Below, piece by piece: positions 20,141-41,963 of a DNA stretch of 64,000 nucleotides. The stretch's first letter is position 1. Each line of letters opens with the position of its first letter. This stretch comes from an uncultured Clostridia bacterium (GTDB lineage: Bacteria > Bacillota > Clostridia > Christensenellales > Borkfalkiaceae). The notes under the pieces are model-generated. The model was not told the origin of the DNA and did no database searches. It worked only from the letters and a program-made list of their open reading frames with translations. A program made the translations under genes and the position numbers. The DNA is taken from contig CANRJR010000001.1 of NCBI GenBank assembly GCA_947631005.1, positions 1-64,000 on the forward strand. The letters run 5' to 3'.

Positions 20141-20149
20141 TATTTCGCT

Positions 20150-20320
20150 GAAAAAGAGGAGCGGCAGAACATGAGTACCGCGCGCGGAGGGATCGCAGGA
20201 AATTCCGCCGAACGCGCACGGGAAAGGGTATCGCCGCCGAAACGCGGCGTCCCTGCCCGCCGCCGTTGGAAGTACGGGTCAATACCCGTGGTTCTGTCAC
20301 TGCGGTGGCGCGCTTTTTCG
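20150..20320 (+). ncRNA. Lysine riboswitch (L-box)
   Basis: gaaaaagaggagcggcagaac...agta...cgccgaaacgcgg...ggttctgtcactgcggtggcgcgctttttc; ends pair as gaaaaag/ctttttc and gcagaac/gttctgt; lies directly upstream of asd-dapA-dapB. Confidence 0.82.
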
Positions 20321-20342
20321 AATGTCCGGGGAAATGCTCGGA

Positions 20343-23236: not shown

Positions 23237-23312
<76 letters not shown>

Positions 23313-23352: not shown

Positions 23353-23388
23353 TGATTAGAGGTTTTGGCTCGGACCGCCGACCCAAAG

Positions 23389-23488
23389 GGCTCCCGAAAA
23401 AAGACGAAGTATTTTTTCGGGAAAAGGAGCCGCCGAGGGCAAACAGAGCTTTTCGCAAGAAAAGCGTAAAAAGCACTCGTGCGGCGAC
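23389..23488 (+). repeat. Structured 100-nt core element (copy E1) after tRNA-Thr
   Basis: ggctcccgaaaaaagacgaagtattttttcgggaaaaggag...gagcttttcgcaagaaaagcg...gcggcgac; related 100-nt element at 41785. Confidence 0.75.
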
Positions 23489-23515
23489 GAGGTCCGAGTC
23501 CGCTCATCAGCTCCA
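23489..23515 (+). repeat. Defective tRNA-Thr 3' tail copy
   Basis: gaggtccgagtccgctcatcagctcca matches the tRNA 3' end but lacks part of the 5' T stem. Confidence 0.9.
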
Positions 23516-23555
23516 TAAAAAGAGAGAAACGCACAAGCGTTTCTCTCTTTTTATG
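23516..23555 (+). terminator. tRNA-Thr terminator copy 2
   Basis: Near-identical duplicate of the hairpin at 23313-23352. Confidence 0.85.
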
Positions 23556-23624
23556 CGATTAGAGGTGGGCTCGGACCGCCGACCCAAAGGGATTCCTCTT
23601 CCCTTATCCGCTCCAAACTGAAAT

Positions 23625-41627: not shown

Positions 41628-41704
41628 TGAGGTGTAGCGCAGTTTGGTAGCGCGCTTGGTTAGGGACCAAGAGGTCGCGTGTTCAAGTCACGTCACCTCA
41701 ACCA
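41628..41704 (+). tRNA. tRNA-Pro (anticodon AGG), CCA encoded
   Basis: TGAGGTG/CACCTCA acceptor, CTTGG-TTAGGGA-CCAAG, CGTG-TTCAAGT-CACG. Confidence 0.93.
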
Positions 41705-41759: not shown

Positions 41760-41774
41760 CGCGACCTCTTGGTC
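41760..41774 (-). repeat. Inverted 15-nt copy of tRNA-Pro(AGG) anticodon/variable-loop segment
   Basis: cgcgacctcttggtc = reverse complement of 41665-41679. Confidence 0.9.
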
Positions 41775-41784
41775 TATTTTGATA

Positions 41785-41884
41785 GGACTCCCATAAAAAG
41801 GCGAAGCATTTTTACGGGAAAAGGAGACATCGCCCGCAAAAGGAGCTTTTCGCAAGAAAAGCGTGAAAAGCGGGCTACGGCGAC
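41785..41884 (+). repeat. Structured 100-nt core element (copy E2) after tRNA-Pro(AGG)
   Basis: ggactcccataaaaaggcgaagcatttttacgggaaaaggag...gagcttttcgcaagaaaagcg...acggcgac. Confidence 0.75.
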
Positions 41885-41885
41885 G

Positions 41886-41917
41886 CGGTCGCGTGTTCAA
41901 GTCTCCCCCTCAACCAC
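41886..41917 (+). repeat. Defective tRNA-Pro(AGG) 3' tail copy
   Basis: cggtcgcgtgttcaagtctccccctcaacca versus tRNA aggtcgcgtgttcaagtcacgtcacctcaacca. Confidence 0.88.
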
Positions 41918-41963
41918 GAAGAGCCTAATTGAACGCGTAAGTGTTTGATTGAGGCTCTTTCGT
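41918..41963 (+). terminator. Hairpin after tRNA tail copy
   Basis: gaagagcctaattgaacgcgtaagtgtttgattgaggctctttc. Confidence 0.75.

What the first reader, a model, noticed from the sequence alone, without database searches (positions are those of the whole stretch)
23389..23488. Covariation-supported 100-nt element shared by two unrelated tRNA loci
Seen: E1 (23389-23488, after tRNA-Thr) and E2 (41785-41884, after tRNA-Pro AGG) are both 100 nt, in tRNA orientation, and end directly at a tRNA tail copy. Hairpin 1 is cccgaaaaaa-g-ac-GAA-gt-a-ttttttcggg in E1 and cccataaaaa-g-gc-GAA-gc-a-tttttacggg in E2, with compensated A-T/T-A and A-T/G-C changes. Hairpin 2, gcttttc-GCAA-gaaaagc, has a GNRA loop and is invariant. 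The enclosing helix is cgagggc/gcactcg in E1 and cgcccgc/gcgggc in E2, with several paired changes. Inference: selection on RNA or ssDNA structure; candidate non-autonomous mobile element or structured ncRNA targeting tRNA 3' ends.
Basis: partly seen in the sequence, partly recalled or inferred. Interest (0 to 1): 0.85.

Follow-up and report, generated by a model that had tools for sequence, protein, structure and literature searches.

The report
Mobile structured repeat that targets RNA genes
The two matching 100-letter stretches are copies of a previously unnamed, strongly folded small genetic element that has spread to hundreds of places in gut Clostridia and their relatives, landing with striking precision at the edges of, or inside, genes for tRNAs and other folded RNAs; no enzyme that could move it was found.

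Summary
Real, and larger than reported. E1 (23388-23489) and E2 (41785-41885) belong to one dispersed family, 'E' (about 100-116 nt). A covariance model from 43 copies has 30 pairs, 27 with changes on both sides. It finds E in 40/41 genomes of the genus (36 copies here) and in 98/297 of the order. No Rfam family matches. E is two stem-loop domains joined by A(R)AGGAG, ending in CGACG.

Among 219 copies not fetched through tRNA, 76 have tRNA/tmRNA sequence starting within 5 nt of E's 3' end: mature 5' ends, CCA ends (antisense) and interiors. Other copies abut RNase P RNA, THF riboswitches, MobV oriT and parS, or lie inside rnpB. So 'tRNA 3' ends' is too narrow.

In 27/202 copies (1/1064 control positions) the site reads U-O-W-rc(UO)-filler-E-O-W: a duplicated target segment plus a 9-16 nt inverted copy of the cut junction. 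This points to a non-autonomous mobile element with an orderly insertion process. The mover is unknown: RT, Y1, TnpB and IS110 proteins do not track it. Both window copies carry the signature.

The parts
23237..23312 (+). intact tRNA-Thr(GGT), target gene
   Evidence: ARAGORN, Rfam RF00005
23288..23363 (+). first copy of the duplicated target segment (tRNA nt 52 to CCA end, terminator, trailer)
   Evidence: the repeat finder D1
23369..23383 (-). 15-nt inverted copy of the insertion junction (rc of tRNA nt 45-59), followed by a 4-nt filler 23384-23387
   Evidence: the repeat finder I5; same signature in 27 copies
23388..23489 (+). element E1
   Evidence: covariance model R1, 114 bits
23392..23422 (+). 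E1 stem-loop P1 (hairpin 1), C-GAA-G triloop tip
23423..23429 (+). E1 conserved unpaired linker AAAGGAG
   Evidence: near-invariant in the alignments
23430..23484 (+). E1 domain P2/P3 (enclosing helix and hairpin 2)
23485..23489 (+). E1 conserved tail CGACG, the fixed 3' end
   Evidence: GACG invariant in 43 sequences
23491..23566 (+). second copy of the duplicated target segment, directly 3' of E1 (1 nt between)
   Evidence: the repeat finder D1, 99%
23567..23584 (-). second inverted copy of the tRNA-Thr segment, not followed by an element
   Evidence: the repeat finder I4
41628..41704 (+). intact tRNA-Pro(AGG), target gene
   Evidence: ARAGORN
41673..41689 (+). first copy of the duplicated target segment (tRNA nt 46-62)
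   Evidence: the repeat finder D1
41760..41774 (-). 15-nt inverted copy of the junction (rc of tRNA nt 38-52), then a 10-nt filler 41775-41784
   Evidence: the repeat finder I2
41785..41885 (+). element E2
   Evidence: covariance model R1, 90.1 bits
41887..41920 (+). second, decayed copy of the tRNA-Pro 3' part (41887-41903 exact; 41908-41920 92%)
   Evidence: the repeat finder D1, D2

Best explanation
E is a non-autonomous mobile element of about 100-116 nt. It acts as a folded single strand (P1 stem-loop, linker A(R)AGGAG, P2/P3 domain, tail CGACG) and is copied into new places by a machinery supplied in trans. Insertion starts at its fixed 3' end: CGACG(N) is joined to a cut in the target between U and O. 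A second cut, about 20-100 nt further on, makes the target segment O-W double. The 5' side is closed by a sloppy, templated step that leaves a 9-16 nt inverted copy of the junction (rc(UO)) and a 1-12 nt, mostly A-rich, filler before GGG, giving U-O-W-rc(UO)-filler-E-O-W. Targets are chiefly genes of folded RNAs, at their ends or inside, and some palindromic DNA sites. Because O-W is doubled, or E sits at an end or in a peripheral loop, the RNA gene survives. Shown: the family, its structure, multi-copy dispersal, exact 3' junctions, target class and insertion signature. Inferred: that the element is copied and inserted as a unit, the order 3' end first, and a target-primed (retroelement-like) process; the enzyme is unknown.
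For: Structure: 27 of 30 pairs with double changes, none of 500 shuffles as high, same fold in other families. Dispersal: 36 copies here, 40/41 genus genomes, 98/297 of the order, 44 of 125 genera. Empty sites: tRNA-Thr loci of several congeners lack E, others carry it upstream, downstream or antisense at CCA. Targets: 76/219 exact tRNA/tmRNA junctions; 5' and distant flanks show tRNA matches that are not locked to the junction; exact CCA abutment also in other genera and families (L253, L257, L262, L277). RNase P RNA and THF riboswitch junctions. Signature: 27/202 with duplication plus inverted junction copy against 1/1064 control positions; duplication alone 51/202 against 4/1064. Precise 3' end, variable filler at the 5' side and variable duplication length fit target-primed copying better than HUH or DDE transposition, which as a rule leave both ends precise and no or short fixed duplications (established knowledge).
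Against: No partner protein: no ORF family recurs beside E except unrelated genes. Reverse transcriptases are absent from G000, G001 and G005, the genomes with most copies, and present in 6/41. About 30% of copies sit next to nothing recognisable. A general preference for hairpin feet was not found. The GNA triloops (112/186) would suit DNA as well. Some tandem arrays (L195, L150) may be later duplications rather than insertions.
Confidence: 0.6

Rival explanations
1. E is a single-stranded-DNA element of the REP / IS200-IS605 type, moved by a Y1 (HUH) transposase in trans; P1 and P2 are left- and right-end hairpins, A(R)AGGAG and CGACG the guide and cleavage motifs.
For: Two subterminal hairpins, short unpaired conserved motifs, C-GNA-G triloops at the P1 tip (112/186), which are very stable in DNA (general knowledge), insertion beside palindromes, and a CGTC/CGACG tag shared with a REP super-family that also lacks a transposase (PMC3733652).
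Against: Y1 transposases are found in 12/41 genus genomes and not in G001 or G005, and only broken in G000; copy number does not follow them. Y1 elements as a rule leave no target duplication, E does in a quarter of copies.
Confidence: 0.15
2. E has no mover of its own: a folded repeat spread by replication-fork template switching and recombination, with the inverted junction copies as ordinary quasi-palindrome template-switch scars.
For: No candidate enzyme; inverted templated patches with filler and tandem arrays are typical of template switching.
Against: Element ends are constant at unrelated sites, the inverted copy has a narrow length of mostly 12-16 nt and straddles the junction, targets are a special class; random switching predicts none of these.
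Confidence: 0.15
3. E is the scaffold of a guide RNA (omega RNA or bridge RNA type): rc(UO) and the 3' flank are its two guides for the target gene.
For: Two target-derived segments of opposite sense flank the scaffold, 5' part mostly 12-16 nt.
Against: The presumed guides match each copy's own site, so they would have to be re-made at each move; TnpB: 0/41 genomes over cut-off, IS110: 2/41; many copies lack rc(UO).
Confidence: 0.05
4. E is a host regulatory or processing RNA of tRNA and other RNA genes, not a mobile element.
For: Structure under selection on one strand (G-U 109 against A-C 39); some copies lie between a tRNA promoter and the tRNA.
Against: Position differs between congeners at the same gene, about half of the tRNA-abutting copies are antisense, copies also at oriT, parS and REP repeats.
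Confidence: 0.05

Closest known systems
CGTC-tagged REP repeats (Di Nocera et al. 2013, PMC3733652), including RPE-4/RPE-6 of Rickettsia and dRS3 of Neisseria
   Same: dispersed palindromic repeats with an unpaired CGTC tag at one end (E reads CGACG, the reverse complement of CGTCG), no dedicated transposase, some families inserted in palindromes
   Different: those are 20-40 bp single hairpins (8-9 bp stem, 4-5 nt loop, mostly CCA tail), not reported from Firmicutes; E has two domains, about 100-116 nt, structured-RNA targets and the duplication plus inverted-junction signature
GTAG REPs and RAYTs (IS200/IS605-type TnpA-REP)
   Same: hairpins with a short purine-rich unpaired motif (GTAG or GGAG) and probable trans mobilisation
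   Different: no RAYT/Y1 gene tracks E; target duplications present
Bacterial MITEs (NEMIS/Correia, RUP, ERIC)
   Same: size, folding as RNA, non-coding, multi-copy
   Different: no terminal inverted repeats spanning the element, no short fixed duplication, special targets
tRNA-targeting retroelements and SINEs of eukaryotes (Ty3, TRE5; recalled, not tested)
   Same: insertion at tRNA genes, non-autonomous RNA-like unit, fixed 3' end
   Different: no polymerase-III machinery in bacteria, no identified reverse transcriptase

Membership tests
CGTC-tagged REP super-family | CGTC (or TGTC/CCTC) tetranucleotide unpaired at one end | tested here: met
   tail CGACG invariant or nearly so, i.e. CGTCG on the other strand
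CGTC-tagged REP super-family | single 8-9 bp stem, 4-5 nt loop, 20-40 bp total, mostly CCA tail at the other end | tested here: not met
   two domains, 30 pairs, about 100-116 nt
GTAG REP / RAYT system | RAYT (Y1 transposase) in the genome, flanked by the repeats | tested here: not met
   PF01797 in 12/41 genomes, none in G001 or G005; no Y1 gene recurs beside E
IS200/IS605 TnpB omega-RNA element | TnpB gene associated | tested here: not met
   PF07282: 0/41 genomes over cut-off
IS110 bridge RNA | IS110-family recombinase associated | tested here: not met
   PF01548 over cut-off in 2/41 genomes
Reverse-transcriptase-dependent element (group II intron, retron, DGR) | cognate reverse transcriptase gene | tested here: not met
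   PF00078 in 6/41 genomes, none in G000, G001, G005; a mover since lost cannot be excluded
Any described RNA family | Rfam covariance model match | tested here: not met
   no match at gathering score for the window, none overlapping E in other loci, only sub-threshold noise at E1
Classical MITE | terminal inverted repeats and short fixed target duplication | tested here: not met
   no element-spanning inverted repeats; duplications of about 11-238 nt

The most novel reading that the evidence does not exclude
A bacterial counterpart of SINEs: a widespread non-coding element that is copied, 3' end first, into genes of folded RNAs by an unrecognised machinery that senses nucleic-acid structure rather than sequence and leaves a duplicated target plus a 9-16 nt inverted copy of the cut site.
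Probability: 0.35. Interest if true: 0.93.

Novelty: new variant of a known kind. Interest (0 to 1): 0.8.

Why it matters
Small repeats are common in bacteria, but few have a known way of moving and, as far as I know, none has been described that homes to tRNA, tmRNA, RNase P RNA and riboswitch genes with base-level precision. The inverted-junction signature is a strong, testable fingerprint of an unknown insertion process, and copies inside or abutting essential RNA genes show how those genes tolerate and escape insertion. The element occurs across a whole order of gut Clostridia, with a few relatives in other classes and in human faecal phage records, so it can be followed in existing metagenomes.

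Tried and rejected
Rfam at gathering and relaxed thresholds: nothing for E. Shared partner ORF near E: only unrelated genes; the MobV relaxases in four loci are a target (E abuts the oriT hairpin in three of them), not a general partner. RT, Y1, TnpB, IS110 as movers: not consistent. 'E always sits at the foot of a hairpin': 3'-flank folding energy and inverted-repeat-start tests were negative for non-tRNA copies (the 50-nt window is too short for a tRNA). Inverted repeats of 7 bp or more flanking E in general: modest excess, 8.8% against 2.5%. Plasmid collection: no match; phage collection: a few diverged matches in unannotated faecal phage records. Viral contig pattern scan failed twice for technical reasons. 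Literature searches found no description (open-access papers only).

Full report
Observation. The two stretches are real and homologous. A covariance model places them at 23388-23489 and 41785-41885, the only strong copies in the window. They follow an intact tRNA-Thr(GGT) and tRNA-Pro(AGG) and are followed, after one base, by a copy of part of that tRNA.

Family. BLASTN with E1 gave 23 places in the same genome and dozens in congeners. An alignment of 43 diverse copies folds into two domains: stem-loop P1 (TCCCG..AAAAA, usually a C-GNA-G tip), an unpaired linker A(R)AGGAG, a P2/P3 arm, and the tail CGACG. Of 30 pairs 27 show changes on both sides; 89.7% of cells are paired, against 40-55% when partners are slid, and the covariation score is 0.50 against 0.07-0.15. 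G-U cells exceed A-C cells (109 to 39; 59 to 26 in distant copies), so the E strand itself is the one under selection; conserved G-A mismatches and GNA loops leave RNA versus ssDNA open.

Distribution. The model hits 40/41 genomes of the genus (36 copies here, up to 48) and 98/297 genomes of the order in 44 of 125 genera, with rare diverged copies in 6 of 400 genomes drawn across the phylum, apart from G000 itself, and in human faecal phage records. Titles of matching contigs name uncultured Clostridia of rabbit and poultry gut, Candidatus Gallimonas and Candidatus Borkfalkia.

Targets. Of 219 copies not fetched through a tRNA search, 76 have tRNA or tmRNA sequence starting within 5 nt of the 3' end: 26 antisense from the CCA end, 13 sense from nt 1, 23 sense internal, 14 antisense from nt 20-30. 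The 5' flank and distant flanks have fewer matches, not locked to the junction. The exact CCA junction recurs in other genera and families (L253, L257, L262, L277). Rfam shows RNase P RNA at further copies, with one copy inside the RNase P RNA gene of G046 (L230:1107-1216), and THF riboswitch ends at L046, L048 and L071. MobV oriT hairpins, parS and a TGTCATTTCGA repeat are also abutted. About a third of copies have no recognised neighbour.

Insertion signature. In the Thr, Pro, Leu and RNase P loci the order is U-O-W-rc(UO)-filler-E-O-W. A search over 202 copies found the upstream direct copy in 51 and both direct and inverted copies in 27; 1064 control positions gave 4 and 1. The inverted copy is 9-16 nt (mostly 12-16) and straddles the junction; the filler is 1-12 nt. 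At tRNA-Thr, congeners show empty sites, filled sites, sites with only the inverted copy, E upstream of the tRNA and E antisense at CCA, so the element is mobile over short evolutionary times.

Mechanism. A fixed 3' end, a sloppy 5' junction with filler and templated patch, and a long variable target duplication resemble target-primed copying. The steps and the enzyme are inferred. Reverse transcriptase, Y1, TnpB and IS110 genes do not track the element and no ORF recurs beside it except unrelated genes. An ssDNA route or template switching at replication forks remain rivals.

Known relatives. The nearest described kind is the REP super-families. CGTC-tagged REPs also lack a transposase and may sit in palindromes, but are 20-40 bp single hairpins and were not reported from Firmicutes (PMC3733652). 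E meets the tag but not the stem, loop, size or mostly-CCA-tail features, so it is not filed there. It is a new, large family of bacterial non-autonomous structured repeats, with a target class and an insertion signature that I could not find described in open-access papers.

Noticed in passing
L006-L013, L024, L053-L073, L125 (same and related genomes): A second abundant repeat, TGTCATTTCGA..GAGAAATCTC / GAGATTTCTC..TCGAAATGACA, looks like a TGTC/CGTC-tagged REP in Firmicutes; many E copies sit at its centre, and E-free versions exist.
   Followed up: partly
L113 and L132, 3' of tRNA-Thr: A different small element (CTACT..CGCGCTTGTGCCG..GGGGCA) is inserted inside duplicated tRNA-Thr 3' ends, so E may not be the only element with this target.
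   Followed up: no
L230:951-1426: RNase P RNA gene with an E copy inside it (1107-1216), between TTTTGCC and GGCAAGG, plus a second E copy downstream carrying the 3' end of the gene.
   Followed up: partly
L285, L289, L293: In genomes outside the class, E-like copies lie directly before an ATG (GACG-AG/AT-ATG) of genes that look like phage genes; folding of P2 would bring the GGAG linker to Shine-Dalgarno distance of the start codon.
   Followed up: no
L188:3961-4067, L254:1501-1611, L259:1501-1612: E directly upstream of the oriT hairpin of MobV (PF01076) relaxase genes in different families.
   Followed up: partly
L266:2030-2141 and L276:5079-5190: E ends exactly at a parS site (TGTTTCACGTGAAACA) in two genomes.
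   Followed up: no
L195:5665-6191 and L150:7273-7581: Tandem arrays (unit about 200-208 nt) of E with tRNA-Leu 5' fragments and what looks like the tRNA promoter region.
   Followed up: partly
window 20146-20323: Lysine riboswitch (RF00168), without an E copy.
   Followed up: no
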